Positions 35,256 to 51,708 of a stretch of DNA of 64,000 bases are shown here, piece after piece. The notes under the pieces were generated by a model. The model was not told the DNA's origin. It made no database searches and worked only from the letters and a program-made list of their open reading frames with translations. The position numbers and the translations under genes are program-made. This stretch comes from an uncultured Elusimicrobiales bacterium (lineage in GTDB: Bacteria; Elusimicrobiota; Elusimicrobia; Elusimicrobiales; Elusimicrobiaceae), in the NCBI GenBank assembly GCA_944327085.1, contig CALVGG010000001.1, positions 62,001 through 126,000 of the forward strand, in the 5' to 3' direction. Positions within the stretch are counted from its first letter, which is position 1; each line of letters starts with the position of its first letter.

Positions 35256-36563
35256 ATGAATAAATTCCGTTTTCTTAATTTTTTAAACAAACATTACCGC
35301 CGCTACCATGACCTGCTGTTTTATTTGCTCACCCTTTCCGTCATCACGCTGGCGACGGTGCTTGCCGTTCATGTTACCAAAGAAAAGAACGAACAGGAAC
35401 TTATCAACCTGCAGGAAAGACAAATAGCGGTGGAAGAATTTACCGTTAAACAAAAACCCATTTATGTGGCTTTGCAGGATGCCGGCCTATCCAACCGGGA
35501 AGTATTTGATATTGTAAACAAATTAAACGAAGTAACCGATACCCGCCGCCTGCAAAACCGGGATACTTACTCCATTTCCACAGACCAGGAAGGCCGTTTT
35601 AATATGCTGCTGCTGAACCAAGGGTTCAAGCATTTTTATGTGGCCAATTTAAACGGCACGCTGGTTTCCGGCGTGAGTGATGTGGAAATAAAAACCCGCG
35701 TTAAAACCGCCGCGGGAGAGGTGGAAGGCTCGCTTTTCAACTCTATGTTAAAAGAAGGCGCCACCATACCGCTGATTGTGGACTTTACGGACGCTTTCTC
35801 CTGGACGATGGACTTCAACTCCGAAACCCAAAACGGGGACCGCTACGCCGCCCTCTGGGAAGAAAATTTCACGGCAGACGGCACCATCACCAGCCAAGAT
35901 TTGCTGGCCGCCTATTATAAAGGCCAAAACGGCCTGACCTACGCCCTGTATTTTAACGGAGAATTTTACGACGAAACCGGCAAAGTAAGTAAAAAAATGT
36001 TCTTAAAAGCACCCATTAGCTTTCGCAGTTACCGCATATCTTCCCGCTTTAGCTATGGGCGCCTGCACCCCATTTTGCGTATCCGCCGCCCGCACTTGGG
36101 TATAGACTACGCCGCCCCCTCCGGCACACCGGTGGACGCCGTGGCCGACGGAACCGTTACTTACGCTGGGCGCAAAGGCGGGTACGGCAACTATGTGGAA
36201 ATTAAACACGCCAACAGCTATGTAACCTCTTACGGGCACTTAAAAAGCTTTGGCAAAGGCATTAAAAAAGGCGCGCGCGTAACCCAGGGGCAAACCATTG
36301 GCTATGTGGGCTCCACCGGGCTTTCCACCGGGCCGCATTTGGATTTCCGCATCAAATACAAAAATAAATTTATAGACTTTTTAAAGATGAAAAACCGCAA
36401 CAATGCAACCCGTTCCGTGAGTAAAGAAGAACGCAAAGATTTTGAAGAATTAAAAGCGCTCTACTTAAAAGAACTGGACCGGGCCACCAAAGAAGCGGAT
36501 GAAAAAGCCAAAGCCCAAAAAGCGGCCCAACAAAACGCCGCCCAAGCCGAGGAGAACAAATGA
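35256..36563 (+). CDS. M23 (LytM-type) peptidoglycan endopeptidase, membrane-anchored
   Basis: 435 residues. One N-terminal membrane anchor (about 20-45) is followed by a periplasmic OapA/LysM-like region with a hairpin domain, then the M23 domain from about 275. The HLGIDYAAP motif holds the first two zinc ligands (H-x3-D) and TSYGHL a catalytic His. The HxH motif reads GPHLDF, so the usual third zinc ligand His is Asp. The C-terminal 60 residues are a charged coiled coil ending in a Lys/Ala/Gln tail. The stop overlaps the next gene (ATGA). Confidence 0.85.
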   Translation: MNKFRFLNFLNKHYRRYHDLLFYLLTLSVITLATVLAVHVTKEKNEQELINLQERQIAVEEFTVKQKPIYVALQDAGLSNREVFDIVNKLNEVTDTRRLQNRDTYSISTDQEGRFNMLLLNQGFKHFYVANLNGTLVSGVSDVEIKTRVKTAAGEVEGSLFNSMLKEGATIPLIVDFTDAFSWTMDFNSETQNGDRYAALWEENFTADGTITSQDLLAAYYKGQNGLTYALYFNGEFYDETGKVSKKMFLKAPISFRSYRISSRFSYGRLHPILRIRRPHLGIDYAAPSGTPVDAVADGTVTYAGRKGGYGNYVEIKHANSYVTSYGHLKSFGKGIKKGARVTQGQTIGYVGSTGLSTGPHLDFRIKYKNKFIDFLKMKNRNNATRSVSKEERKDFEELKALYLKELDRATKEADEKAKAQKAAQQNAAQAEENK

Positions 36564-37126
36564 AGAAAAAAATAGCTTTAACCGGCGGGCCCAACAGCGG
36601 TAAAACAACGGCCCTGTCCGTATTAAAAGAAACATTTGGCCCGCAGGTGGAACTGGTACGGGAAGCTGCCACCATGATTTTTAGCGGCGGGTTCCCCAGG
36701 CAGGATAACAGCCGCCCGCATATAGAAACTGCCCAGCGCATTATTTTTCATGCCACGCAGCAACTTGAAAGCCTGGCGGAAAAAACGTCCGACGCGCAAC
36801 TAATCGTGTGTGACCGCGGCACCGTGGACGCCGCCGTTTACTGGCCGGGAGGAGTGGACGATTTTTTTAAACAAATGGGCACCACGCTGGAAGAACAACT
36901 GGCCCGTTATGATGCAGTGCTGCACTTATCCCCGCCCACCAACCCGGCGTTTTATCAATCCACCCATGTGCGCACGGAAAGCTTGGAACAAGCTTTTGAA
37001 ATTGACCGCAAAATTTTAAAAATTTGGGAAAAACACCCCAACCGCTTAATTGTAGGCGGCAAGGAACACTTTTTTGAAAAAGCAGAAATTATTAAAAATT
37101 TTGTAGAAAAATTACTTCAAAAATAG
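36560..37126 (+). CDS. P-loop NTPase (AAA_28-like), copy 1 of a tandem pair
   Basis: 188 residues. It has P-loop GGPNSGKTT at 9-17, REAATMIFSGGFPR, a LIVCDRGTVDAAVYW Walker B-like segment, and a C-terminal half with HVRTESLEQAF resembling a nucleoside-kinase lid. The family is AAA_28/NadR-kinase-like, and substrates are mostly unknown. About 72% identical without gaps to the next gene, so the pair arose by recent tandem duplication. Starts inside the end of the M23 gene, and transcription is presumably shared. Confidence 0.75.
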   Translation: MKKKIALTGGPNSGKTTALSVLKETFGPQVELVREAATMIFSGGFPRQDNSRPHIETAQRIIFHATQQLESLAEKTSDAQLIVCDRGTVDAAVYWPGGVDDFFKQMGTTLEEQLARYDAVLHLSPPTNPAFYQSTHVRTESLEQAFEIDRKILKIWEKHPNRLIVGGKEHFFEKAEIIKNFVEKLLQK

Positions 37127-37134
37127 GAACTGTT

Positions 37135-37701
37135 ATGAAAAAGAAAATCGTTTTAACAGGCGGCCCCAGCGGCGGGAAAACAACCGCTCTTTCCATATTA
37201 AAAGAAACATTCGGCAATAAAATTGCCCTGGTACAGGAAGCCGCCACCTTAATTTACAGCGGAGGTTTCCCCCGTAAAGACAACAGCCCCCTGCACATTG
37301 AACACGCCCAAAACATTATTTTTTATACCGTGCACCAGCTGGAACAACTGGCGGAGGAAACTTCCCCGGCTGATATCATCGTGTGCGACCGCGGCTCCAT
37401 AGACGGCGCCGTTTACTGGCCCAAAGGCCCGGAAGACTTCTTTAAAGCCATGAACACCACCCTGGACGCCGAACTGGCCCGTTACGACGCGGTTTTGCAC
37501 CTTTCCCCGCCGCCTGAAAAAGATTTTTACCAAGCCACCAATGTGCGCACGGAAAGCCTGCAACAGGCTTTTGAAATTGACGACAAAATTTTAAAAATTT
37601 GGGAAAAACACCCCAACCGTTTAGTCGTCCCGCGGGATAAACATTATTTTGAAAAAGCGGAAATTATTAAAAATTTTGTGGAAAAAATGCTTTCCAAATA
37701 A
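37135..37701 (+). CDS. P-loop NTPase (AAA_28-like), copy 2 of a tandem pair
   Basis: 188 residues, the same length as copy 1 with 52 substitutions by manual comparison and no gaps. The P-loop reads GGPSGGKTT, and the CDRGSIDGAVYW and NVRTESLQQAF segments are kept. The 3' thirds of the two copies are nearly identical (KILKIWEKHPNRL, EKAEIIKNFVEK). Conserved residues suggest both are active. Eight bases separate it from copy 1, with a GGAACTGTT spacer. Confidence 0.75.
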   Translation: MKKKIVLTGGPSGGKTTALSILKETFGNKIALVQEAATLIYSGGFPRKDNSPLHIEHAQNIIFYTVHQLEQLAEETSPADIIVCDRGSIDGAVYWPKGPEDFFKAMNTTLDAELARYDAVLHLSPPPEKDFYQATNVRTESLQQAFEIDDKILKIWEKHPNRLVVPRDKHYFEKAEIIKNFVEKMLSK

Positions 37702-38159: not shown

Positions 38160-38651
38160 CTAAAAATTCATTAAATAATAATTCCCGTCCATTTCCGGGT
38201 CTGCCGGGCCATATGTTTTGCAAATAGCCACCCCCACCGGATTATCCGCCTTGGCATAACACCAGCGCTTGCCGCTATTACTTTGCTTGGCGCCAGAAGC
38301 AGCCGGAACATTTAACAGATGGAACTCTATAAATGTGGGCAGGTTTTGTTTTTTAGCCCTGGCAAAACAGGTGCGGTTATAGCTGCAGTGAAAGTCCCAC
38401 TCTTCGGATTTTGGCACTTCTATATCCAAACTGTCCATATCATTGGTGTAACTGCCATTGGCCATATAATAGGCTTCCTGCGCCTGGTTTATCGTTTTTA
38501 ATACAGCTACCGCATTGGCCACGCGCGCCTTGGCCACCGCTTTGGTATATTGCGGAAGGGCAACAGAAGCCAAAATGCCAATAATCAAAACCACTACCAA
38601 TAATTCTATTAACGTAAACCCCTCTAATTGCCTTGCAGTACCGTTTTTCAT
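38160..38651 (-). CDS. Type IV pilin (PilE-like)
   Basis: 163 residues, normal pilin size. An 11-residue leader ends in Gly, and then [22 protein letters not shown] gives Phe+1, Glu+5 and the membrane/assembly helix. The globular head has an [17 protein letters not shown] segment and four cysteines (CSYNRTC near the middle, WCY and AIC later), enough for two disulfides. Of the three pilins in the window this looks most like a major subunit. An AAGGAG ribosome site is present. The promoter contains a perfect inverted repeat and an A12 tract. Confidence 0.88.
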
Positions 38652-38760: not shown

Positions 38761-39498
38761 TTACGGCTCCCGCGCGAGAGTAAAAGCCATTACGGTTTTT
38801 GCCCCGGCTTGTTTTAAGGCCACGGCACACCCTTCCAGCGTGGCCCCGGTGGTGGCTACATCGTCTATCAGTAAAATGCGTTTGCCTTTCGCCTGCGGAG
38901 CGGCGATAAACGCCCCCACCATATTATCCAAGCGTTCCCGGCGGTTTAAACGGGCCTGGGGCAAAGTGTCTTTACGCCGTTGTGCCAAATCCGCACACAA
39001 AGGCAGGCCGGTATGGCGGCAAAAATATTGCGCCAGCAAGAGAGACTGATTATACCCCCGGGCGCGCTGTTTTTTGGGGCGAAGAGGAACAGGAAGCACA
39101 CAATCAACGCCTTGCAACTCCGGGTAACGGGCAAATTCCTGCGCCATACACGCACCTAAATACTCCGACAAAAAGCTGTAGCCTTGGTATTTAAACGCAT
39201 GAATAAGCGCCTGGCTCTGCGGGCCAAACAACCAGGCGGAACGGATAACCTGGCATTTAAATTGTTTGCCTTTGCTGCCGCGGCAGCGCGGGCAATGCGC
39301 CCCGCCGGCAGGCAACACGGTACCGCAGCGCATGCAAATAAGCGGGCCCGGGCGCCGTATTTGCGCCAGGCACCCCGCACACAACGGATGAGGAAACCGG
39401 AAAGGCAAATCCACCCCGCACGCAAAACAGGTTCTAGGCAGAAGAATATGGAGGAGGCCTTCCCAACCGAAGGCCAATATCCGTTGCAATTGAAACAT
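38761..39498 (-). CDS. comF: ComF family phosphoribosyltransferase
   Basis: 245 residues from the ATG at 39498, 13 bases after the stop of the upstream giant gene; longer frames run into that gene. N-terminal zinc-finger cysteines: CFACG, CAGC, CMRCG, CPRC. The C-terminal PRTase domain has the PRPP-binding ILLIDDVATTGATL and LPVPLRPKKQRARGYNQS. ComF acts in natural transformation downstream of DNA uptake, which fits the type IV pilus genes. The ribosome site is weak, so translation may depend on the upstream gene. Confidence 0.88.
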   Translation of the reverse strand: MFQLQRILAFGWEGLLHILLPRTCFACGVDLPFRFPHPLCAGCLAQIRRPGPLICMRCGTVLPAGGAHCPRCRGSKGKQFKCQVIRSAWLFGPQSQALIHAFKYQGYSFLSEYLGACMAQEFARYPELQGVDCVLPVPLRPKKQRARGYNQSLLLAQYFCRHTGLPLCADLAQRRKDTLPQARLNRRERLDNMVGAFIAAPQAKGKRILLIDDVATTGATLEGCAVALKQAGAKTVMAFTLAREP

Positions 39499-39511
39499 AC
39501 TTTTACCCGCT

Positions 39512-42500
39512 CTAAAACTGCACGGTAATATTGGCGGAAAAATTATACGCGTTATAATCTTCCGTAGCCACATAAGCGTGTTTTAAAATGGTGTAACCGC
39601 CGGCAATATTAAAGCGTAAATTTTGAGACATTTCATAATCCAGCGAAGTGGTAACATCATATTTTTTATAGTTATCGGTTACTTCCACAGGGGAAGATTT
39701 TTCCGTATAGCTTAAAACGGTATTCCAAATTACGCGGTTGGTGGCTTTATACATCCGGTCAATAAACGGCAGTTTAATACCGCGGGGGAGGTTAAAGTCC
39801 CAGCGGAGCGTCAGGCTGGGGGTGGTTTCCCGCGTGCTTTCGTTTAACTTTCCCACCAGCCATTTATCATGGGATGTATAAGTAATTTTAGGGGTCAGGC
39901 GCAGGGTGCCGATATAAAAAGAAGTCTGGGCGGAAAGGTCAATATCGTCGTAACGTTCCAGGTTGGTACCGGCGCGCAAGTCTTGCGTATCGGACGTTTT
40001 GCGGGTATAGTTAAACACGTTATCAAAATAATTAAACAATATAAAGCGCAAGTCCCCGCCGTATTGTGTTTCTAAACCGTCTTGGGAATTTTCGGTTGTT
40101 TGGGTAATTAAGCTGTAGCGCAATTTTAAGTTGGATGAACTTAACCAAGAACCGGCATAAAAGAATTTTTCCAAATCGCTGATGGAGAAAACCAAATCCG
40201 GCAAGGTTTGGCTTACGGAATCATACACCGTACCGGTTTGGTTATTGGTTTGGGTGGTGTAGCTGAAGTTATTAATTAAAGAAATGGTTTTTAACGGGGC
40301 CGCCATGCCGTTTAACTCGTATTTGGAAAACGGAGACCAGCGCTGAGACGAAGTGAACGTATCGCGCAACGTCATAGAGCTTAAATAACCGTAAGGCCCC
40401 ACATCCCCCATGGAGCCGCGAATCCACAACTCTTTGCGGGAATCAAAGCCGCTGTCCACATCGTTCCAAGTGTCGGCGTCCTGTATGCGGAAAGAATTGG
40501 AAATAACAAAAGTGTTAAACAGTTTGCTGTTGGGCAACAGTTCGTTACCGTTTAAGGTAAGCGATACGCCGCCGTCCGCATTGCGGTTGATGGATTTTAC
40601 CTCCCCTATGCCCACATCGGCACGTTGGCCGTTGGCGGTAATGGTTTTGGCCGTCAGGTTATTATTTTCTATGGTAGACACATTATAACTAAACGAAGGC
40701 GCCAGCCAGGAGGCCACCTTCCACGTGCTGGTAAAGCCGGTGCTTTGGTTCATGGCCTTAGGGTATTTAAAATTTTGCGCCTCATCGCCTTCGTAGCGAA
40801 GGCGTTCTTCGGTGCTTTTGGTAATATTGTAACTGGGCACAAAGTTAAAATTATTGGTGGGTTGATAGTTTACTTTTACGTTTAATTTTTGGGTGTCTTC
40901 GTCCGTATTATAATTATTGACGGACTGTTGATGCATTTCTTTGGCATAGTCTATTTTGGTATTGGTAAAATAATAACCCGCATTTACGCTTTTTAAGGTA
41001 TCGGTTTCGTGGCTGACGGTTACCCCGTAAGTATGCATATCATCTTTACGTTGCATCAGGTCATAGTCGGTCTGGTCCATGGTGTATTCCAGGCCCACTT
41101 TAGGCAAGTTTTCTTTTACAAAATCCCCGCGCACAACGGCACGTTCCCGCTCCACTTTGCCTTTATCCAAAAGGCTGATGGTATTATAATCCGTGCTGTC
41201 TTCAATGTTGGGGGTTACCACGGTGCTGCGCGTTAAGGTGGCCTCCATCGGGAATTCTTTTATTTTATCTACTTTTAAAAAGTATTCTTCTTCCGTCGTT
41301 TCCTGGTTTTTGGAAACGGTAAGCGGGGTTTGGAAGTTGCTGTCCTGATATTTGTATTTGGCGCCGGCACTGCCCCAGCCGTCCAATTTAACGGCTACGT
41401 TACCGGTATAAGCCTGCCCATACTGAATGACCGTTTCCGCCAAATGGATAACATTTAACCACACATGCCCGCCCTGCACGCCGGGGATGGGGCTGTCGTC
41501 CTTTTGCATACCGGCAATAATCAAACTTACTTTTTTAAAGTTCATCACTCCGCCCGGCACACGGTGGCGGGCCACGCGCACGTTGTATTCTTCTTTGGAG
41601 GCGTTTTCAAAAGAATCCGGTATGCCGTCCCCGTCCGTATCCACCATTTTTAAAGAAATTAAACGCCAGCCGTCAAACCCGGCAGGAACAATAACCTTAT
41701 CGTAATTATTTTCCGTACCCACTTTTAAGAAAAATTCAGATCCGGCGTTTGACTCTTCACTGTGAAGCAAAAAGCGAAACTCTTTATGTTGGGTAAAATC
41801 CATCGTGGAAAAGTTGCGGCTGGCGTACAATTCCCCCGCCGGGTGTTCATCGGTAGCGTCATCGGGCACCGGGCTGAGGCCCAAAGTATTAAATTCAATA
41901 TCCAGGGATTGGTCCTTGGCATTTACGGAATCCGTAGCTTCTTTTAAATTGCCGATAGAGCCGTACAAATAATTAAATACTTCCAGCCCGTCCCCGTGCA
42001 CATCATTAAAAATAGGCTCGTAGTTTGCATTATCCACGTTATTAATGCCGGTAACCAAAATACGCTTGTCCTCGTTATTTTCCATGGTGTTCCACGCCGT
42101 GCCGGACAAGCCTACATTGGCAATTTTTATTTGCCCTTTGTATTTACCGGTGGCGCGCATTTCATCGGTTAATTTTAAGGTAATACGCAAGTGGCGCACG
42201 GCCGTCCACTGGTCTTTTACATCTGCAATATCCAGGGGGGTTACAAAGGTTTGCCAGCCATCAAAATTAATGCGGTTGTTATCCCAGGTTACCTGGTCGT
42301 TATCGGCAATGGTACCGGCGCCGCCGGCAAAACCAAAGTTACCCAAAGCCGGTATGCTTTCATCATCAAATTGCCCGTTGGCGTTTAAATCCTGCGTATC
42401 AATGCGGCCGTTAGGTTGAGATTCTGGGTTATATACATTGTTTACAAACGGGTTATAGCGGTGGGTATTCCCGTCCGGGTCTTCATATTCCCAGCCGATG

Positions 42501-44971
42501 TCTTCGCTGGGGGCCAGGCTGTTGCGGCAGCGGACGTCTTCCGTCTTTGGTACGCCGACGCCGCATTGCGTATCCATGCCGTGGCCGCTGTCGGAATATT
42601 CGCTGATATTACCGAAGGTAACGTTTAACTGCGGGCCGTTGGTTTCCCCGCGCATAGTTAAATCAAACGAAGTTTTGGAAGACAAGTCTACACCGCTTAC
42701 GCTTAACGGATAAACGATAGACACCTCATCATATCCTTCATCCAAATAGCTTTTTCCGGTGGCGGCATCAATGGTGGTGGCGGCTTTGGTGAAATCGTAA
42801 TTAATAATTAAAACTTGCTGCTGGTCATTGTAATTACTGATGGAGTTGGGGTTAATTTCCAGGCTGGCTACGTCTTGCGTATCCCAGCCGATAGAACCCC
42901 AAAATGCGGATTTGCCGCTGGGGTTGGAGGCGATGACCCAGTCCCTGAATATTCTGGAGCCGCTGGTTTGCACGCTGGTGTCGTTCATACTGTCCACCAT
43001 GGCATAACCGAACTGGTTGGGGTTGTTGCGAGATTCCGCCACTTCCGCCCCGAAATCCACCGCCACTTTATCGGAAAGTTTAATGTCTTTACCGTTAATG
43101 TCTGCCCCGTATACCAACAAGTCTTTGCTGTAATTGCCCACCTGGGGGACGGTGGTGGGTTTATCGCCCGCTTCTTTTAAAACGGTGGTGCCCAGCTGGA
43201 TTTTATCCCAAAGTTTATAATCCAAACGCCCCCCCATTACAGACGTATTGGAATTGCTGCCCCCCACCGTATCGTAAGTGATGTTGATGACGGAAGAATC
43301 GGTAATTTCATCCCCTTTGTAAAAAGTGATGAAGCCGGAGGTATAGTCAATATAATAATCATTGTTGCGGGTAAGGGTTTTGCCGTTTAATTTAACGGTT
43401 TCAGACTCAACCACAATATTCGGCTCAATAAAATAGGTTTTAACCTTAGAAGTATACTCCACCTTAAAAGTACGGTTGTAGGAAGACACCGGGGTGGGAT
43501 TATAGAGCGTATTGTCCGCAAAGCGGCGCTCCAGGTAAAAGACGCCGTTGTCAAAATCCATAATAATATTGCTGGGGTAAGTGAGGGTTCCTCCGTCAGA
43601 AATAGGGAGAGATATTTCCTGCCCGGCCGCGTCCGTTACGCGCAGCAGGAAGTTGCCTTTTCCGTCGTCGCGCGTAATTTGCTGCGCACCCAAAGAATAG
43701 TAGGTTTTTAATTCCAGCTGGTAGGCTGTTTCATTGGCAGACCCTTCCACCGATTTTTCGTTTTCCGTTTTGATTAACTTAATATCGCCCTGGTTACCCA
43801 TTACCTGGCTTAAACGGTTGCCGGTGGTGCTTACATAGTCCACAGCAATAAAGCTTTCCGGCGTAATGGTGCGTTTAAACTGGATAATACCGCTTGCATA
43901 ATCCACTGTGTAATCCGTACCGCGGGTTAACAAACGCCAGTTGGAAGTGCGCCGGTATGTGCCGCCAAGCACGTCGGAAGCGGTTTTGGAAATAGGCACA
44001 AAGTCGTTATCTGTATTGTTGGCGTCCAAATAAATTTCTTCCGTGCCGGGGGAAATATTGCCCATAACAGAGCTCCACTGGCTGTAAGCATCCGTATAAA
44101 AACCGGTGGGAAGGCGGCCCTGCGTATCCTTTTTAATATTTCCGCCGAAAGTCAAATCGTAATAAGTGCGGCGTTTGTAGTCTGCGTCTGAAAGGCTTTT
44201 AATTTCCAACACACTGCTGCCCACAAATTGCTTTTGCTTGCTGGAACCTTTGGTTTGGGAACCGATTAAACGCAAGTTTAAATCTTTATACTGCAGGTGC
44301 ATCTGCGCACCAAACAGCTGCTTTTGGTAAGCGATAAACTCCGTTTCTGGCAAGGAAAGGTTAATATCGCCAAATTCGGCCAGTTGTACCAATTCTCCCG
44401 GTTTACCGCGGTATGCCACGGAAATGGTTTTTTCTTCTTCGCGTTGGTCGTCATAGTCAATATCCACAAAAACGCGGTCCAAAATTTTACCCTGCATTTT
44501 TAATTGCAGTTCCTGCACCATGCTGTTGGAGCTTACGTCCCTTTCTTCGGTGGTATTGTTATCGTCCACCTTGTATTTTTTTGCGTCCATTTTAAAACCC
44601 AGCACATAACGCCCCGTAAGCGCAATGCTGGTGCCGTATAAAGGCAGGGATAACGTGGGGTTTAAAAGGGTTAAGTCCGGTATGGGTTCGGGGTCTTTGT
44701 CCAGCTTATAGGCGCCCTCCACCGAGGTTACCGCCTGACGCCAGAACTCGTCGGAATATTTTAACAGTTGGGCATCGTCGGGCGGGTCTTCTACGGTCAG
44801 TTCCTTTTCCCGCTGGGCTTCTTGGTCTTCGGCAAAAATATCGTATTGGCTTTTGTCCACCAGGCTGTACGGCAAGTCCTCCGCCCTCAGGCCGGGCGGA
44901 AGTATTAATTGCGTGCACAAGACAAGGCACAGAAAGGTCCGGAGGATTTTCATGGGGGCAAAATACCTCAT
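39512..44971 (-). CDS. SprA/Sov-like giant outer-membrane protein (type IX secretion translocon family)
   Basis: 1819 residues. The signal peptide ends near LRAED; an ATG six codons later (44953) is a possible alternative start. The region around residues 195-245, FGDINLSLPETEFIAYQKQ followed by LFGAQMHLQYKDLNLRLIGSQTKG, matches the SprA N-terminal pattern in which plug repeats precede the barrel. The remainder is rich in amphipathic beta-strands, with jelly-roll-like insertions at about 700-1150. The C-terminal sixth has RWDFNLPRGIKLPFIDRMY and ends in NITVQF, a terminal aromatic. SprA forms the 36-strand exit channel of type IX secretion in Bacteroidota. No other T9SS gene is in the window. 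Family call is by pattern recognition. Confidence 0.6.
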   Translation of the reverse strand: MRYFAPMKILRTFLCLVLCTQLILPPGLRAEDLPYSLVDKSQYDIFAEDQEAQREKELTVEDPPDDAQLLKYSDEFWRQAVTSVEGAYKLDKDPEPIPDLTLLNPTLSLPLYGTSIALTGRYVLGFKMDAKKYKVDDNNTTEERDVSSNSMVQELQLKMQGKILDRVFVDIDYDDQREEEKTISVAYRGKPGELVQLAEFGDINLSLPETEFIAYQKQLFGAQMHLQYKDLNLRLIGSQTKGSSKQKQFVGSSVLEIKSLSDADYKRRTYYDLTFGGNIKKDTQGRLPTGFYTDAYSQWSSVMGNISPGTEEIYLDANNTDNDFVPISKTASDVLGGTYRRTSNWRLLTRGTDYTVDYASGIIQFKRTITPESFIAVDYVSTTGNRLSQVMGNQGDIKLIKTENEKSVEGSANETAYQLELKTYYSLGAQQITRDDGKGNFLLRVTDAAGQEISLPISDGGTLTYPSNIIMDFDNGVFYLERRFADNTLYNPTPVSSYNRTFKVEYTSKVKTYFIEPNIVVESETVKLNGKTLTRNNDYYIDYTSGFITFYKGDEITDSSVINITYDTVGGSNSNTSVMGGRLDYKLWDKIQLGTTVLKEAGDKPTTVPQVGNYSKDLLVYGADINGKDIKLSDKVAVDFGAEVAESRNNPNQFGYAMVDSMNDTSVQTSGSRIFRDWVIASNPSGKSAFWGSIGWDTQDVASLEINPNSISNYNDQQQVLIINYDFTKAATTIDAATGKSYLDEGYDEVSIVYPLSVSGVDLSSKTSFDLTMRGETNGPQLNVTFGNISEYSDSGHGMDTQCGVGVPKTEDVRCRNSLAPSEDIGWEYEDPDGNTHRYNPFVNNVYNPESQPNGRIDTQDLNANGQFDDESIPALGNFGFAGGAGTIADNDQVTWDNNRINFDGWQTFVTPLDIADVKDQWTAVRHLRITLKLTDEMRATGKYKGQIKIANVGLSGTAWNTMENNEDKRILVTGINNVDNANYEPIFNDVHGDGLEVFNYLYGSIGNLKEATDSVNAKDQSLDIEFNTLGLSPVPDDATDEHPAGELYASRNFSTMDFTQHKEFRFLLHSEESNAGSEFFLKVGTENNYDKVIVPAGFDGWRLISLKMVDTDGDGIPDSFENASKEEYNVRVARHRVPGGVMNFKKVSLIIAGMQKDDSPIPGVQGGHVWLNVIHLAETVIQYGQAYTGNVAVKLDGWGSAGAKYKYQDSNFQTPLTVSKNQETTEEEYFLKVDKIKEFPMEATLTRSTVVTPNIEDSTDYNTISLLDKGKVERERAVVRGDFVKENLPKVGLEYTMDQTDYDLMQRKDDMHTYGVTVSHETDTLKSVNAGYYFTNTKIDYAKEMHQQSVNNYNTDEDTQKLNVKVNYQPTNNFNFVPSYNITKSTEERLRYEGDEAQNFKYPKAMNQSTGFTSTWKVASWLAPSFSYNVSTIENNNLTAKTITANGQRADVGIGEVKSINRNADGGVSLTLNGNELLPNSKLFNTFVISNSFRIQDADTWNDVDSGFDSRKELWIRGSMGDVGPYGYLSSMTLRDTFTSSQRWSPFSKYELNGMAAPLKTISLINNFSYTTQTNNQTGTVYDSVSQTLPDLVFSISDLEKFFYAGSWLSSSNLKLRYSLITQTTENSQDGLETQYGGDLRFILFNYFDNVFNYTRKTSDTQDLRAGTNLERYDDIDLSAQTSFYIGTLRLTPKITYTSHDKWLVGKLNESTRETTPSLTLRWDFNLPRGIKLPFIDRMYKATNRVIWNTVLSYTEKSSPVEVTDNYKKYDVTTSLDYEMSQNLRFNIAGGYTILKHAYVATEDYNAYNFSANITVQF

Positions 44972-45054: not shown

Positions 45055-46125
45055 TTAGCGCACTTCGTACACTTCCAGGCGCACTTCCTGCACGCCCTGT
45101 TGTAAAAATAAAAATATTTTATCGCCTGTCTGGGCGGGAATAACCTGTTCCAGCCGCAAATAATTAAACGTGCCCGGATAATGTTTAAAATCCCGGCTGA
45201 AAACGGTTTTTCCGTCTCGGTGCACTTCCACCAGGCCTACATTTTCGGTAATATTAATATCCGCAATTTTAACCCCTTTAAAAACAAGCGGTTTCAGTAC
45301 GCGCCCGCCGTTTTGCATGGCGGTAAATAAATCGTCTATAGCGGCCTTGGCATTTACGGCAAACCCCAGCTTGCCCTTAAAACTGCCGCTGTGTATGCCC
45401 ACCACTTCTCCCTGGGAATTTAACAAAGGCCCGCCGCAGGCGCCGTTCCCGCGGCCTTCCGGCGGCAGGGTGGTAATAATTTTATAGCCGCATACGTCCA
45501 GTATGTGTCTGTTGGCGTTTTTGCTGTAATCTTTGGGCCAAAAATTAGGGTCCGGAAAGCCAAAAGAATCCACAAACGTATTTTTTTCAGGCCCTTGCCG
45601 GGAAATAACCAGCGGCCGGACATGGTCTTTTACTTCAGGAGGGAGCTCCACCAGCGCCGCATCCGCCCCGTTAAACCCGTACGAGCCGGAAACTTTTACC
45701 ACGCCCCAATAATACACCGGGGTAGCATCCGGCAAATAAAAACGCATTTTTAACCGGTTACCCGCACGCCCGGAAATATGATAAGGCACCACGCCCCAAA
45801 TTTTTCCGTCCCGCTCAAACACAAAACCGGAAGAGCGGGTGGAACCGTCCAGCGGCATAATGACCTGAAAGATAGACTGGCGGATATGGCGCTCCACCTC
45901 ACGCCAGCGGCTTTCAAAAGCGGCAGCCAGCAACCGGCGTTCCATTTGGCGTGCGGCATTTTGCGCCCCTGCCAAAGCCTTTTGGCCGGCAGATTGCAAC
46001 GCAGTTTTGGAGCTTGATTTTTGCACCGCGTTTTGTAAGCCTTTCACCAAGCTTTTGCCGTTTTGGGCAGAGGCCGAAACATTTCCGCACAGTAAAAAAA
46101 CCAATACACAGCAAAGATTTTTCAC
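45055..46125 (-). CDS. Secreted trypsin-fold protease with Cys nucleophile, member 4 of tandem array
   Basis: 356 residues. Signal peptide (CCVLVFLLCGNVSASA), then a basic, Ala/Gln-rich stretch to about 75, then a chymotrypsin-like double barrel. Proposed triad: His116 (VVPYHISG), Asp155 (NGADAALVELP) and Cys230 (GNGACGGPLLNSQGEVVGIHSGS). In the trypsin_2/S1 family the last residue would be Ser. The Cys codon is TGC and unambiguous. The C-terminal 85 residues form a domain shared with the three upstream proteins. Starts 3 bases after the previous gene. Substrate unknown; an inactive or non-protease role cannot be ruled out. Confidence 0.75.
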   Translation of the reverse strand: MKNLCCVLVFLLCGNVSASAQNGKSLVKGLQNAVQKSSSKTALQSAGQKALAGAQNAARQMERRLLAAAFESRWREVERHIRQSIFQVIMPLDGSTRSSGFVFERDGKIWGVVPYHISGRAGNRLKMRFYLPDATPVYYWGVVKVSGSYGFNGADAALVELPPEVKDHVRPLVISRQGPEKNTFVDSFGFPDPNFWPKDYSKNANRHILDVCGYKIITTLPPEGRGNGACGGPLLNSQGEVVGIHSGSFKGKLGFAVNAKAAIDDLFTAMQNGGRVLKPLVFKGVKIADINITENVGLVEVHRDGKTVFSRDFKHYPGTFNYLRLEQVIPAQTGDKIFLFLQQGVQEVRLEVYEVR

Positions 46126-46128
46126 TTG

Positions 46129-47178
46129 TTAATCTCCCACCCGGTATTCTATTACGCCGGCTATGCGCCCGCGCTCCACGATTTCAAAAATAATCACGTC
46201 TCCCTTTTGAATGCGCCCGGTGCGAAAAACATTCTCCGCCCGTGCGTAAGTAAAAGGCGCCCTGAAATAATCCATATCCACCCGTTCCAGCAGGCGGCCG
46301 GCGCGCTCCAAAGAAATACTGCCGATGCTTTGAAAAGGCTCTATTTCAAATAGGGTTTTGCCCAAAATTTTTACGGGCTGCGCCGCGTGCCCAAAGTAAA
46401 ACACACGCAACAGCTCCTTTATCCCGGCGGCGGAAACGGCAAAAGTTTGTTTGCCTTTTTCACTCCCGCAGTGCATACCCAGCACATACCCGCTGGAGCT
46501 GATAACAGGCGCCCCGCAAAAACCGCTGGGGGCGGGCGGAAGCTGATAATCCCCGCTTAATTTAAAACCGGTCGTATCAGTTATCCGGCGGGCATATACC
46601 CCGGGGATAACGTCCTCTTTCAACGCGCACATATAACCATAACCTTGGGCCACTTCCCCCACCCGGGCGCCTTTGTCGGACAGGCGCAACGCAAAAACTT
46701 TTTCCGCCAGTTCCTCCGGCAGTTTAATTAAAGAAACGTCCAAGCTGTTTATACCCCATCCGCCACCCTGGTTAACCGTAAAATGCTGAACGGACGAATT
46801 GCCTTTCCCGTCAAAAAAGCGCAAATACACTTCCGCCCCGGCACTGCCGCTGGTGTGGTAAGGAACGGCCGCCCAAACAGTGCGTTTGCCTTTAAAAAAT
46901 TCTTCAAAAATAAAACCGGAGGAATGGAAGCCGCCTTCCCCCACGTTTACAACCTGTACCAATGCCCGGCGGATATTGGCTTGCACCAGTGCCGCATTAT
47001 AAGGGTGTTTAAGCAGCAAGGCCCGGTAACCCTGTTGGCGGGCCTGCACGGCGCGGCGTACCCCGTTTTTTAATATTTTTTGTATTTTTCCGGCTAAAAC
47101 CTGCGGGGTTTTGGAAACCTGCCCCCACCCCATAACCGGCAAACAGCTAATCAAAAATAATGTAAGCAAATGTTTCAT
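46129..47178 (-). CDS. Secreted trypsin-fold protease with Cys nucleophile, member 3
   Basis: 349 residues with a signal peptide (LLTLFLISCLPVMGWGQ) and a basic N-terminal segment. Proposed triad His108 (AAVPYHTSG), Asp147 (NSLDVSLIKLP) and Cys221 (PSGFCGAPVISSSGYVLGMHCGS). It deviates most from the others: the oxyanion motif is GFCGAP and the C-terminal domain is shorter in its conserved core. The ATG overlaps the stop of member 2 (ATGA), evidence for one polycistronic mRNA. Confidence 0.72.
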   Translation of the reverse strand: MKHLLTLFLISCLPVMGWGQVSKTPQVLAGKIQKILKNGVRRAVQARQQGYRALLLKHPYNAALVQANIRRALVQVVNVGEGGFHSSGFIFEEFFKGKRTVWAAVPYHTSGSAGAEVYLRFFDGKGNSSVQHFTVNQGGGWGINSLDVSLIKLPEELAEKVFALRLSDKGARVGEVAQGYGYMCALKEDVIPGVYARRITDTTGFKLSGDYQLPPAPSGFCGAPVISSSGYVLGMHCGSEKGKQTFAVSAAGIKELLRVFYFGHAAQPVKILGKTLFEIEPFQSIGSISLERAGRLLERVDMDYFRAPFTYARAENVFRTGRIQKGDVIIFEIVERGRIAGVIEYRVGD

Positions 47179-48299
47179 TTTTCAGGCACCGTGTAGGTAA
47201 TAAAATCACGCTGGTCTTTGCCGTCCGTTGTAATGCGCAGGCGGAGCTGATCCCCGGGGTGCAAAGCAGGCAAAACCCGCTCCAGGCGGGTATAATCCAC
47301 CGGTTGTGGGTGCAGGGTAACGCAAACTTCCGTCAGTTTTTCCCCATTGCGGAAAATTTCCACATCACTCACCCGCTGGGTTAAAGATAAGCTAAGCACT
47401 TTCTGCCCGTTTACGCGCACCTCCCTTACCAAAGAAGGCTTGCCTTCCATTTGGTTAAATAAAAATTGGGATACGCGGGCAAAATCCAACACATAACTAT
47501 ATTTGCCAAAATTACTGCCTATATGCAGCCCCACTACCTTGCCGTTTTTAATTACCGGGCTGCCGCAGGCACCCTGGGCGTAGCCGTCTTTTTTGCCAAA
47601 ATTATAAGTGGAGCGAAACTGCCAGTCATTTACCGCAATTACACGGCGGCCGGCCGTTTTAATTAATTTAGCTCCTATCCACGGGCCGTGGTAACCGTAT
47701 GAATCTACCTTGTCCCACTTGCGTACCGGTTTGGCAGCTACTTGCAGCGGGCGAATATACTTAAGGGCCCACGCAGGCACTTCCATCAGCACCATATCCG
47801 GGTTGTGCAACCCCACGGAACCGCGTGCACGCACAATAAAAAACGCAGGCAGGTATTCTCCATCCCCAATATAAAAACGCACCGGCACTTTCTGGCCGAT
47901 TTGCTTGGTTAAATGCCCGGCGGCTGCAGCCCATATTTGGCCGGAACCGTCCGGCCGAATAAAAACAAAACCGGTGCCTAAAGGCATTTTGTCTGCATCC
48001 AAAATTTGAAAGACACTGTAATGAATATTTTTTTCAAAACTTTCCTGCAAGGCTTTCTTTTTTTGCCAGGCGGCACGCAAACCCAACAATTTGTAAAGTC
48101 CTTCCGTGGCGGCATCCTTAGCGGGAACCTGAGATATCTTTTCCACCATGCCGGCTGAAGCGTGGCGCTTCTGCGGCTGGGAATTTTCCACCGCATTAAA
48201 TACTTTTTTCCACAATTTGCCTGACTTGGGCTGCGCCGCCGCCCCCTGCCACAACAACAAGGCCATCATCAAAACCGCCAACTTGCGCATATGCCGCAT
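47175..48299 (-). CDS. Secreted trypsin-fold protease with Cys nucleophile, member 2
   Basis: 374 residues, signal peptide (LAVLMMALLLWQGAAAQ). Proposed triad His129 (WAAAAGHLTK), Asp168 (HNPDMVLMEVP) and Cys245 (YAQGACGSPVIKNGKVVGLHIGS). The C-terminal domain with VEIFRNGEKL and VDYTRLERVLPALHPGDQLRLRI is shared with its neighbours. It starts 9 bases after member 1. The longest linker between signal peptide and protease domain of the four. Confidence 0.73.
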   Translation of the reverse strand: MRHMRKLAVLMMALLLWQGAAAQPKSGKLWKKVFNAVENSQPQKRHASAGMVEKISQVPAKDAATEGLYKLLGLRAAWQKKKALQESFEKNIHYSVFQILDADKMPLGTGFVFIRPDGSGQIWAAAAGHLTKQIGQKVPVRFYIGDGEYLPAFFIVRARGSVGLHNPDMVLMEVPAWALKYIRPLQVAAKPVRKWDKVDSYGYHGPWIGAKLIKTAGRRVIAVNDWQFRSTYNFGKKDGYAQGACGSPVIKNGKVVGLHIGSNFGKYSYVLDFARVSQFLFNQMEGKPSLVREVRVNGQKVLSLSLTQRVSDVEIFRNGEKLTEVCVTLHPQPVDYTRLERVLPALHPGDQLRLRITTDGKDQRDFITYTVPEK

Positions 48300-48308
48300 A
48301 AATTCTCC

Positions 48309-49415
48309 TTACTTTACAACAAACTCCAAGGTTTCCGTTTCCATAAAACGTTGGTCTTTTAACTCAATATATATTTTATCGCCTCGGCGGGCCTGCGGAA
48401 CAAGCTGTTCTAAGGAGCCGTAATCAAAAGGTTTTTCTCTTTTAGTTAACAAAACAGAATCAATCGTGCGCCCATCTCTTTTTACTTCCACGCGGCTAAT
48501 GCGTTGGGAAGCCGTTAAACGGCAGATTTCCCGCCCATTCCACACCACGGGGCGCAGCAGCTGTTTATCCCCATGTACGTCAGCCAGCATGGCCCGCACG
48601 GGGCCGGGGGCCGCCACCGCAAAACTGCAGCTGGCGCTGGTGTTGCTGCCGCTGTGTATGCCCACCACTTCTCCCTTTTCGTTTAATAAAGGGCCGCCGC
48701 AAGCGCCGCTTGGATTATGCTTGCCAAAAGGATAGGAAGTAGTAATACGGCTGTTATCTACAGACTCAATCACCCGGCCGGTGTTTTGCTTGGGGGAGCC
48801 GGCAAATTCGGCATTGGGGTTTAAAGAATAAAAACCGAAAGAGGAAACCAGGTCTCCCTTGTTGGGGTTTTCCTGCGCCAAGCGCAGGGCAAAAACTTCG
48901 TCCTGCATTTCCGGCGGGACCAAGGCCAAAGAAAAATCATAATTTTGATAACCTGCACTGCCGTAAGCCATTACCCGCAACGCCTGGCGGGATACGGTTC
49001 CGTCCGCCTTGATATATTCCGCTATAAAAAAGGGGCTCTCGTCCACTAAAGCATGCGCCGGGATAACGGCCCACACCAACCGTTTGCCCATATAATACTC
49101 TTCCATAAAAAATCCGCTGGCCTGCACCGCGGGCGTATACATAAAAAACACCGCACTTTTTATTTTTTCCTGCACCAAAGCGGCACTATAAACCGCCGCT
49201 TCTTTGGGGGCCGCGCGTTTAGCCCCTGCTATGGCGGCCGCACGGGCACGCAACACTGCCGTGCGGGCGGCGTTTTCTGCCCGAGCTGAGGCTTTTTGAG
49301 CTATGCGCTGCACCGCCTTTTTAGGCAGGCGCTGGCCCAGGGCCACAGGGTTTAACAAACAAACCACGCCCAACACCACTGCCATTATTTGCACGGCCTT
49401 CCTATTCAGTTTCAT
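48309..49415 (-). CDS. Secreted trypsin-fold protease with Cys nucleophile, member 1 (operon leader)
   Basis: 368 residues, signal peptide (IMAVVLGVVCLLNPVALGQ), then a 50-residue Ala/Arg/Lys-rich segment. Proposed triad His121 (VIPAHALVDES), Asp160 (NYDFSLALVPPEM) and Cys239 (PSGACGGPLLNEKGEVVGIHSGS). H-D spacing is 39 residues, as in all four members. The shared C-terminal domain has RVEVKRDGRTI and FDYGSLEQLVPQARRGDKIYIEL. The promoter directly upstream is of the leaderless type. A non-proteolytic role is possible, but the intact triad argues for activity. Confidence 0.75.
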   Translation of the reverse strand: MKLNRKAVQIMAVVLGVVCLLNPVALGQRLPKKAVQRIAQKASARAENAARTAVLRARAAAIAGAKRAAPKEAAVYSAALVQEKIKSAVFFMYTPAVQASGFFMEEYYMGKRLVWAVIPAHALVDESPFFIAEYIKADGTVSRQALRVMAYGSAGYQNYDFSLALVPPEMQDEVFALRLAQENPNKGDLVSSFGFYSLNPNAEFAGSPKQNTGRVIESVDNSRITTSYPFGKHNPSGACGGPLLNEKGEVVGIHSGSNTSASCSFAVAAPGPVRAMLADVHGDKQLLRPVVWNGREICRLTASQRISRVEVKRDGRTIDSVLLTKREKPFDYGSLEQLVPQARRGDKIYIELKDQRFMETETLEFVVK

Positions 49416-49528: not shown

Positions 49529-50623
49529 ATGCGCATTGGTATTTTTACTAAATATATTGCCAAAACACTCATCACGTTTTTCCTGGCCGTGGTAAGCATA
49601 TTAACGTTGGTAATTTTTATGAATTATTTTATCCGCGTGGTAAATATGGCCATGGCCTACGGAACGGGTATGGGGTGGGTGATTTCTTCGCTGGCCAATG
49701 TGCTGCCCACTGTGCTCTCGCTCAGTGCGCCGATGGCATTTCAAATAGCGGTTTTACTTACGCTTACCAATATGAGCGAACACGGCGAGCTGATTGCCCT
49801 GCGGGCGGCGGGGTTTTCCTTCCGGGAAATTATCCGCCCGCTTTTGGTGTGTGCGGTGGGGCTGGCCGCCCTGTTGGTATTTGTTGGTAACTGGGGGGCC
49901 CCGCGCAGCTATAAAAACTTTTTGGACCGGAGAGACGAAGCCCGCAGCAAAATTACCAAAGTAACCCTGGAACCGAAAATGTTTATTAACCTGGGAGAAT
50001 GGGACCTGTACCTGGAAGAACTGGACGAAAAGACCGAAGAAGCCCGCCAAATCCATTTAATCAACAAAGCCGATGAAAAAGCCCTAAGCACCAAAGTAAA
50101 CGCCGCCAAAGGAAAAATTATTTTAACCGATACGGCCATAGGTCTGCAACTGCAAGACGGGCAAATGCAGCGTATTGCCGCCAATGACCCTTCCGCCATT
50201 ATTGCGGCCAATTTTGACAATTACACCATGAGCATCTCTCTTACGCAAACCCATCGGCGCTCGCAGCGCGTGTCTGAACTGACAACCACCAAACTGTTGC
50301 GCCAAATACGCACCAAAGATTTACCAGAAGAAACCGTAAACGAATACCGCACCGAAATAAGCGTGCGCAATGTATTGGCGCTTTCCCCCATTTTAATGTT
50401 ACTCGTCAGTTGTCCGTTGGGGTTTTCGCTGGGGAAACGTTCCAATAAGGGGTGGGGGATGCTGTTTAGCATCATCATCATCTTTACGTTTTATTTGCTG
50501 ATGACCCTGGGCCTGAGTATTGGCAAAAAATATGCGGCCCTGTCTTACATTGCCCCGTGTTTGCCGTTTTTTGTGGGGGCTTTTGTAGCTAAATATTTAT
50601 GGAAAAAGAGGCTTAACATTTAA
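49529..50623 (+). CDS. lptF: LPS export permease LptF (YjgP/YjgQ family)
   Basis: 364 residues. Three N-terminal membrane helices (ITFFLAVVSILTLVIFMNYF opens), a periplasmic beta-jelly-roll domain (about 130-260), then three C-terminal helices. NMSEHGELIALRAAGFSFREIIRP is the cytoplasmic coupling region typical of LptF/LptG. It pairs with the next gene product and the LptB ATPase (not in the window) to extract LPS from the inner membrane. The F versus G assignment follows gene order only. Confidence 0.85.
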   Translation: MRIGIFTKYIAKTLITFFLAVVSILTLVIFMNYFIRVVNMAMAYGTGMGWVISSLANVLPTVLSLSAPMAFQIAVLLTLTNMSEHGELIALRAAGFSFREIIRPLLVCAVGLAALLVFVGNWGAPRSYKNFLDRRDEARSKITKVTLEPKMFINLGEWDLYLEELDEKTEEARQIHLINKADEKALSTKVNAAKGKIILTDTAIGLQLQDGQMQRIAANDPSAIIAANFDNYTMSISLTQTHRRSQRVSELTTTKLLRQIRTKDLPEETVNEYRTEISVRNVLALSPILMLLVSCPLGFSLGKRSNKGWGMLFSIIIIFTFYLLMTLGLSIGKKYAALSYIAPCLPFFVGAFVAKYLWKKRLNI

Positions 50624-51708
50624 TGCCGCGCATTTATTTTTATATTGCCCGTAAATTTTGGGGGCCCTTTTTATTTGCCATGGGCGTGTTTGCCGCTTTG
50701 GTGGTATTGGGGGATACTTTTGAAAAATTAAAAACTTTAAATAACGGTTATTCTACCTTAGGGGCAGTGCTTAGTTATTCCCTGGCCACGTTTCCCAACT
50801 GGTTGGCTACCATTATGCCGGTGGCGTGCCTGCTGGGGGCGATATCCGTTATTTCCGAAATGGTATCCAACGGGGAATGGACGGCCTGCGTGGCGGGTGG
50901 GTTTTCCCCCAAGCAATTATTTATACCGATAGTGGCCTGCATTATGCTGGTAACCGGGCTGACGATGCTTATGCAGGAGTTTATTGTTCCCCCGTTAAAC
51001 CTAAAAGCCGAAACCATTTATTACACCCGCATAAAGCCGCAAAAAGATTTTAATTTAAACGTGGAACATAATGTGGCCATGAAAATTTCCCCCCACCAAA
51101 TGCTTTATGCCAAAACGGTGGATTTAAGCGCCGGGAAAATGGAAGAAATATCCGTGGATACCTATGACTCTTTATGGAATATCTCCCAGCAAATTGTGGC
51201 CGATTCCATGACGTGGGACCCGCAACAGAAAAGCTGGGTATTCCAAAACGGAACCAAGCGCACGTTTGTGGATAAAATGGACACCACGGAAGAAACCTTC
51301 TCCACCGCCAAAGCCCCGGTATATACGGACCCGCAGGACATGTCCGTCAACCGTACGGAAAGCAAACTGTTAAGCATACGGGATTTAAATAAACGCATCC
51401 GCTTCTTTAAACAAAGCGGCTTGGCTTATTACGAGGCGGAAACGGCACGCCAGTCCAAGCTGTCTACCCCGTTTGTAACGCTGATTATGTGTTTGTTGGG
51501 TATGCCGTTTGCCATCAGCATGCGCCGCAAAAGCAAAATTTTAAATATTTTGGCGTCTTTGGTTATTGCGTTTACTTTCTGGTGGTTGATTTCTATGTGC
51601 ACGTCTATCGGGGAAAACGGCTATTTGAACCCGTTTTTGGCCGGCTGGGGGCCGGTATTGTTCTTTACAGTAGTGGTGTTTATTGAATTTAAGTGGCTAA
51701 AATTGTAA
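50623..51708 (+). CDS. lptG: LPS export permease LptG (YjgP/YjgQ family)
   Basis: 361 residues with the same six-helix plus periplasmic-domain layout as its neighbour. MPVACLLGAISVISEMVSNGEWTACVAGGFSPKQLFIPI is the coupling region and RRKSKILNI precedes the last helices. One-base overlap with lptF (TAATG) implies coupled translation and a 1:1 complex. The operon ends at a strong terminator. Confidence 0.85.
   Translation: MPRIYFYIARKFWGPFLFAMGVFAALVVLGDTFEKLKTLNNGYSTLGAVLSYSLATFPNWLATIMPVACLLGAISVISEMVSNGEWTACVAGGFSPKQLFIPIVACIMLVTGLTMLMQEFIVPPLNLKAETIYYTRIKPQKDFNLNVEHNVAMKISPHQMLYAKTVDLSAGKMEEISVDTYDSLWNISQQIVADSMTWDPQQKSWVFQNGTKRTFVDKMDTTEETFSTAKAPVYTDPQDMSVNRTESKLLSIRDLNKRIRFFKQSGLAYYEAETARQSKLSTPFVTLIMCLLGMPFAISMRRKSKILNILASLVIAFTFWWLISMCTSIGENGYLNPFLAGWGPVLFFTVVVFIEFKWLKL

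What the first reader, a model, noticed from the sequence alone, without database searches (positions are those of the whole stretch)
39512..44971. SprA/Sov-like type IX secretion translocon outside the usual phyla
The 1819-residue protein has a signal peptide, a plug-like N-terminus with the pattern GDINLSLPETEFI...LFGAQMHLQYKDLNLRLIGSQTKG seen in SprA, and a beta-strand-rich body ending in an aromatic residue. SprA forms the exit channel of type IX secretion and is best known in Bacteroidota and relatives. The other genes here (many unlike pilins, LptE/F/G order) do not look like Bacteroidota, so this may be a T9SS-like system in another phylum.
Basis: partly seen in the sequence, partly recalled or inferred. 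Interest (0 to 1): 0.75.

Follow-up and report, generated by a model that had tools for sequence, protein, structure and literature searches.

The report
SprA-like secretion channel in Elusimicrobiota
A gut bacterium of the phylum Elusimicrobiota, and nearly all its relatives, encode a distant version of the giant outer-membrane channel that Bacteroidota use to export proteins, together with carrier genes usually paired one-to-one with their cargo, although this export system is said to be confined to Bacteroidota and allied phyla.

Summary
The 1819-aa gene is real (39512-44971, MINUS strand) and is a remote SprA/Sov homologue. TIGR04189 scores 120 bits (E 5e-35) but misses its 200-bit cutoff, and Pfam SprA_N does not hit. 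A profile of 21 relatives hits only F. johnsoniae SprA in the PDB (8e-34, colinear); both half-models match SprA far ahead of anything else in Foldseek. The genome belongs to Elusimicrobiota; 254 of 294 phylum genomes have the gene, usually beside lptF-lptG and comF. It is not the LPS translocon: a separate divergent LptD exists. The phylum also carries PorV-family carriers (59/60 genomes, up to 32 per genome) and T9SS type A C-terminal domains (42/60). CTD genes sit directly 5' of porV genes far beyond chance, and CTD and PorV distances correlate within single genomes. The window's own genome looks minimal: one SprA, one PorV, one recognisable CTD adhesin, the last two beside a Tad pilus operon. 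GldL/GldM models find nothing credible (no positive control). Best reading: a divergent T9SS-like exporter in which substrates have dedicated PorV carriers, with unknown power source. The held open literature limits T9SS to FCB phyla and describes one general PorV for type A cargo.

The parts
39512..44971 (-). SprA/Sov-like outer-membrane translocon, 1819 aa
   Evidence: ORF; TIGR04189 120 bits, E 5.1e-35; PDB profile hit to SprA 8e-34; Foldseek to SprA 2.9e-40 and 4.4e-30
44882..44971 (-). signal-peptide-like N-terminus, about residues 1-30
   Evidence: by inspection of the translation: hydrophobic stretch LRTFLCLVLCTQLILPPGLRA
44159..44677 (-). N-terminal SprA block (TIGR04189 positions 80-254), with the conserved FGDI.LSLP.TEF...KQLFGA..H...K...IGSQTKG stretch
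   Evidence: E 2.8e-16, coordinates converted from G000:C1; conservation
43664..43963 (-). second SprA block (TIGR04189 positions 365-470)
   Evidence: E 6.3e-7
42917..43468 (-). third SprA block (TIGR04189 positions 585-789)
   Evidence: E 3.2e-13
39515..41529 (-). C-terminal barrel region, about residues 1148-1819, 29 predicted strands of 10 or more residues, terminal Phe invariant
   Evidence: AlphaFold2 model of residues 640-1819, mean pLDDT 85.7; strand count
49529..50623 (+). lptF/G-family permease, conserved divergent neighbour of sprA-like in 18 of 21 loci (neighbourhood, not part of the exporter)
   Evidence: Pfam LptF_LptG 1.7e-64; synteny
50623..51708 (+). second lptF/G-family permease of the pair
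   Evidence: Pfam LptF_LptG 6.6e-72; synteny
38761..39573 (-). comF-like phosphoribosyltransferase, overlaps the 3' end of sprA-like; conserved neighbour in 17 of 21 loci
45055..49415 (-). four tandem secreted trypsin-fold genes with a Cys in the nucleophile position, 84 bp 5' of sprA-like in this lineage only
   Evidence: link to the exporter is conjecture

Best explanation
The gene encodes the outer-membrane translocon of a divergent type IX-like exporter that is general in Elusimicrobiota. Proposed mechanism: a substrate crosses the inner membrane by Sec, enters the periplasmic side of the SprA-like barrel, and its C-terminal beta-sandwich domain (CTD) is captured by a PorV-family carrier docked at the barrel's lateral opening; the carrier-substrate complex then leaves sideways and displays the substrate on the cell surface. 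Unlike Bacteroidota, where one general PorV serves all type A substrates, many substrates here come with their own PorV encoded directly downstream. In the window's genome one such pair is recognisable: a large multi-Ig adhesin-like protein and its PorV, beside a Tad pilus operon. Shown here: homology and fold of the barrel, PorV-family and CTD genes, their pairing, their correlated distances, a separate LptD. Inferred: lateral exit, pair specificity, surface display. Unknown: the energy source and any CTD-cleaving enzyme.
For: Homology: TIGR04189 5e-35; the A1 profile's only PDB hits are the two SprA sequences, 8e-34, three colinear stretches. Fold: Foldseek ranks all four SprA entries first for both halves, E 2.9e-40 to 2.2e-29 against 5e-7 for the next and 4.4e-30 to 5e-27 against 2e-5; VIA Z 16.5 over 825 residues for the N-half. 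Retention: 254/294 phylum genomes, about one copy. Carriers: PorV_fam in 59/60 genomes; own PorV 96.2 bits, cutoff 90. Cargo: TIGR04183 in 42/60 genomes, up to 67 per genome; the own adhesin's C-terminus is hit by a CTD profile built only from free-living relatives at 2.5e-13 (best of 200 shuffles 0.13). Pairing: CTD gene directly 5' of PorV in 10/20 loci picked by PorV alone against 5/151 other genes (Fisher 9e-8), 29/42 in two genomes, 11/11 in eight Elusimicrobiaceae. Within-genome CTD/PorV distance correlation r 0.61 and 0.75, 0/5000 permutations each.
Against: The equivalog cutoff for SprA is not reached and Pfam SprA_N does not hit. In the window's genus TIGR04183 finds no CTD; the own CTD is recognised through phylum-specific profiles and has a long insertion between its halves. 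GldL and GldM models find nothing credible. Three of the four genomes of the 60-genome sample in which no SprA was found still have some PorV-family hit (G008, G017 weakly, and G048 with 15 PorV and 6 CTD), which may be assembly gaps but weakens strict co-occurrence. The correlated distances could come from co-duplication of pairs rather than specific binding. No experiment exists.
Confidence: 0.8

Rival explanations
1. A lipopolysaccharide or envelope-biogenesis barrel that works with LptF/LptG, next to which it is encoded, and not a protein exporter.
For: Divergent lptF-lptG neighbours in 18 of 21 loci across the phylum; neither LptD Pfam family reaches its cutoff in 41 genomes although both ring in control genomes.
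Against: A separate, divergent LptD-like protein (reading frames of about 630-755 aa) is found in 10/10 genomes tested, the window's own included. The fold match is to SprA, with LptD far behind. PorV-family and CTD genes, the exporter's partners, are present.
Confidence: 0.07
2. A complete canonical T9SS with its GldK/L/M/N motor, too diverged for the family models to see.
For: The translocon itself scores below the family cutoff yet is a clear homologue, so shorter motor proteins could be missed; GldL gave one weak hit in one Endomicrobia-like genome (E 1.8e-5).
Against: No GldM hit at all and no other GldL hit in 60 genomes; the gene neighbourhoods read at sprA-like and porV genes show no gldKLMN-like cluster (by inspection only).
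Confidence: 0.25
3. A relic: the barrel is kept but in the reduced gut lineages it no longer exports anything, or has been reused for another cargo.
For: TIGR04183 finds no CTD protein in the window's genus, and the gene was not found in many Endomicrobia-like genomes, mostly small or incomplete ones.
Against: The reading frame is intact and well conserved; one CTD adhesin and one PorV are kept side by side in all eight Elusimicrobiaceae genomes examined.
Confidence: 0.06

Closest known systems
SprA/Sov, outer-membrane translocon of the type IX secretion system (Flavobacterium johnsoniae; PDB 6h3i, 6h3j, 8gl6, 8gl8)
   Same: Detectable sequence homology in three colinear stretches, same fold by Foldseek in both halves and by VIA in the N-half, many-stranded barrel, signal-peptide-like N-terminus.
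   Different: Shorter (1819 against 2403 aa), 11-18 % identity in structural alignments, below the TIGR04189 cutoff, no Pfam SprA_N match; encoded beside lptF-lptG and comF.
PorV (NF033710), general carrier of type A T9SS substrates
   Same: PorV/PorQ family protein (NF033709 96.2 bits in the own genome, over the cutoff).
   Different: Equivalog PorV scores only 26.6 of 250 bits; up to 32 copies per genome and usually encoded directly 3' of one CTD gene. Bacteroidota type A cargo uses one general PorV (PMC12635249).
Type B T9SS substrate with dedicated carrier (SprB with SprF, PorP family)
   Same: One carrier per substrate, to which the substrate stays bound (PMC12635249).
   Different: Here the carrier is PorV-like and the CTD is type A-like; only the logic is shared.

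Membership tests
SprA/Sov translocon (TIGR04189 equivalog) | score over the curated 200-bit cutoff | tested here: not met
   120.1 bits, E 5.1e-35; 0 of 294 phylum genomes over the cutoff; full-length relatives 139-166 bits
SprA/Sov translocon (TIGR04189 equivalog) | Pfam SprA_N (PF14349) domain | tested here: not met
   no match at E up to 1; whole-genome search also empty, its controls silent
SprA superfamily (homology to solved SprA) | significant colinear sequence match to SprA | tested here: met
   profile against the PDB, 8e-34, only hits
SprA superfamily (homology to solved SprA) | same fold as SprA | tested here: met
   Foldseek 2.9e-40 and 4.4e-30, SprA entries the top four each time; VIA Z 16.5 for the N-half. 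For the C-half alone VIA ties SprA with TonB-dependent barrels
SprA superfamily (homology to solved SprA) | single barrel of about 36 strands with capped pore and lateral opening | tested here: inconclusive
   about 12 long strands up to residue 650 and 29 after 1148 in two separate half-models; the whole chain is over the 1200-residue limit
Type IX secretion system | PorV-family carrier | tested here: met
   own PorV 96.2 bits against 90; 59/60 phylum genomes, 38 over the cutoff
Type IX secretion system | substrates with a T9SS C-terminal domain | tested here: met
   TIGR04183 in 42/60 genomes; own substrate by a phylum profile, 2.5e-13, though not by TIGR04183
Type IX secretion system | GldL/GldM proton-driven motor | tested here: inconclusive
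   GldM 0/60, GldL 1/60 and weak; no control genome rang, so absence is not shown
Type IX secretion system | GldK/GldN ring, SprE, SkpA, SprT, PorU sortase, PorQ/PorZ | not tested
Type IX secretion system | export of CTD proteins depends on the barrel | not testable with these tools
   needs genetics in a cultivable relative
LptD (LPS translocon) | LptD barrel family | tested here: not met
   no LptD family in the Pfam scan; a separate LptD-like gene at G000:C3:187633-189381

The most novel reading that the evidence does not exclude
Elusimicrobiota have a type IX-like export system of an architecture not described in Bacteroidota: no GldKLMN motor, and each type A-like substrate has its own PorV that travels with it, so that gut members keep a one-translocon, one-carrier, one-substrate version tied to a Tad pilus operon; Bacteroidota later gained the motor and a general carrier, or Elusimicrobiota lost them.
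Probability: 0.35. Interest if true: 0.85.

Novelty: new variant of a known kind. Interest (0 to 1): 0.66.

Why it matters
Open literature says T9SS genes are absent outside the FCB phyla (PMC11285876, PMC4793230). A phylum-wide SprA homologue with PorV-family carriers and CTD cargo widens the range of this export mode and gives a natural stripped-down version: in gut Elusimicrobiaceae one recognisable substrate and one carrier, which makes carrier specificity and the need for a motor directly testable. It also suggests how these poorly understood gut and groundwater bacteria may place large proteins on their surface.

Tried and rejected
LPS translocon (LptD-like) reading, suggested by the lptF-lptG neighbours: rejected because a separate LptD-like gene exists in 10/10 genomes, though both LptD Pfam models miss it. 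A second PorV in the own genome (G000:C9): rejected, it is a FadL/OmpP1 protein (Toluene_X 1.1e-63). Plasmid carriage: tblastn found none. Relatives in other phyla: the one genome-contig scan returned only Elusimicrobiota or unnamed bins in its best 80, so the range beyond the phylum was not measured. phmmer of the single sequence against the PDB found nothing; only the profile did. SprA_N by whole-genome search is uninformative because its controls were silent. Tad genes near porV pairs outside Elusimicrobiaceae: none in the stretches read. VIA on the C-half alone does not separate SprA from TonB-dependent barrels. Papers on Elusimicrobia genomes by DOI were not held.

Full report
What is there. 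The ORF is at the stated coordinates but on the minus strand: 39512-44971, 1819 aa, with a signal-peptide-like N-terminus and an invariant C-terminal Phe. The window is C1:62001-126000 of a 1.67-Mb genome.

What the protein is. Pfam SprA_N does not hit. TIGR04189 (Sov/SprA equivalog) hits at 5.1e-35 but at 120 bits, below the curated 200; three blocks are colinear in the gene. A profile of 21 Elusimicrobiota relatives, searched against all PDB sequences, finds only F. johnsoniae SprA, at 8e-34 in three colinear stretches. The quoted 'plug-like' stretch aligns to SprA 150-267 and is part of N-terminal beta strands, not a plug. AlphaFold2 models of residues 31-1180 (pLDDT 79.5) and 640-1819 (85.7) each retrieve the four SprA entries first, with E-values 20 or more orders better than the next match; VIA gives Z 16.5 over 825 residues for the first half. 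For the second half alone VIA ties SprA with TonB-dependent barrels. About 41 long strands were counted over the two half-models, compatible with a very large barrel but not a proof of 36 strands. I therefore call it a SprA-superfamily protein, and do not file it as an equivalog SprA because the cutoff was tested and not met.

How common it is. 254 of 294 genomes of the phylum (178 of 189 good ones; 82 of 90 genera) have it, essentially single-copy, about 1800 aa, none over the cutoff. Many of the genomes without a hit are Endomicrobia-like (family f15), several of them 0.6-1.1 Mb. The neighbourhood is conserved: a divergent lptF-lptG pair in 18 of 21 loci and comF in 17 of 21.

Is it the LPS translocon? 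The lptF-lptG neighbours raised this. Neither LptD Pfam model reaches its cutoff in 41 genomes although both ring in controls. A weak hit led to an Endomicrobia-like 715-aa LptD-like protein, whose relatives occur once in each of ten genomes, including the window's own. So LPS export has its own barrel, and this rival is unlikely.

Partners. PorV-family proteins occur in 59 of 60 phylum genomes, two to six in most gut Elusimicrobiaceae (some of these FadL-like) and up to 32 in others. T9SS type A CTDs occur in 42 of 60, up to 67 per genome, but none in the window's genus by TIGR04183. In the own genome one true PorV (96.2 bits, cutoff 90) lies 15 bp downstream of a 1550-aa multi-Ig protein with a CTD-like C-terminus. 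A CTD profile built only from free-living relatives hits that C-terminus at 2.5e-13, against 0.13 for the best of 200 shuffles, in two colinear segments split by an insertion. A combined CTD profile finds no other CTD protein in the own genome. That profile contains the own CTD with its insertion cut out, so it shows only that no similar CTD was found elsewhere, not that none exists.

Pairing. Of 20 loci chosen by PorV alone, 10 have a CTD gene immediately 5' on the same strand, against 5 of 151 other genes in the same stretches (Fisher p 9e-8). In two genomes examined deeply the figures are 19/29 and 10/13. In eight Elusimicrobiaceae genomes 11 of 11 PorVs sit directly 3' of a CTD gene, and in all eight one such pair lies beside a Tad pilus operon. 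Inside single genomes CTD and PorV distances correlate (r 0.61, n 21; r 0.75, n 11; 0 of 5000 permutations each), and still do after removing close paralogues (19/5000 and 6/5000). Co-duplication of pairs could give this without specific binding, so specificity is inferred.

Missing or untested. GldM: 0 of 60; GldL: one weak hit. No control genome rang, and a divergence like that of the barrel could hide both, so absence is not shown. GldK, GldN, SprE, SkpA, SprT and PorU were not tested.

Mechanism. By homology to the solved translocon, in which PorV docks at a lateral opening and pulls the CTD-bound substrate out (PMC10994853), the most likely scheme is: Sec export, entry into the barrel, capture of the CTD by the paired PorV, lateral release and surface display. 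In Bacteroidota type A cargo uses one general PorV while type B cargo has dedicated carriers (PMC12635249). Here type A-like parts follow the dedicated-carrier logic.

Novelty. [quoted passage not shown] Full-text searches for T9SS with Elusimicrobia found no report. The library lacks subscription journals and the main Elusimicrobia genome papers, and automated database annotation may already label such proteins, so priority is not proven. I rate it a new variant of a known kind.

Noticed in passing
window 45055-49415 (-): Four tandem secreted trypsin-fold paralogues whose nucleophile position is Cys (G[AF]CG[GAS]P), His and Asp kept by eye, 84 bp 5' of sprA-like. A homologue with the same Cys lies 83-179 bp 5' of sprA in 16 of 67 loci of this lineage; a candidate maturation peptidase, untested.
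   Followed up: partly
L175:434-14847; L177, L179, L183, L251, L253, L255, L257: A CTD adhesin-PorV pair lies beside a Tad pilus operon in all eight Elusimicrobiaceae genomes checked, but no Tad gene was found near PorV genes elsewhere in the phylum.
   Followed up: partly
L215:631-2778; G000:C3:187633-189381: Elusimicrobiota LptD is so diverged that neither LptD Pfam model reaches its cutoff, yet homologues are found in all ten genomes tested.
   Followed up: partly
L251:4764-13210: In G003 two large CTD proteins with identical C-terminal ends precede a single PorV, apparently a duplication of the cargo only.
   Followed up: no
window 6497-7501, 38160-38651, 62670-63947 (-): Scattered type IV pilin-like genes with the same N-terminal motif; one carries a long Cys-rich C-terminal region.
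   Followed up: no
window 36560-37126 and 37135-37701 (+): Tandem pair of closely similar 188-aa P-loop proteins (MKKKI.LTGGP..GKTTALS), not identified further.
   Followed up: no
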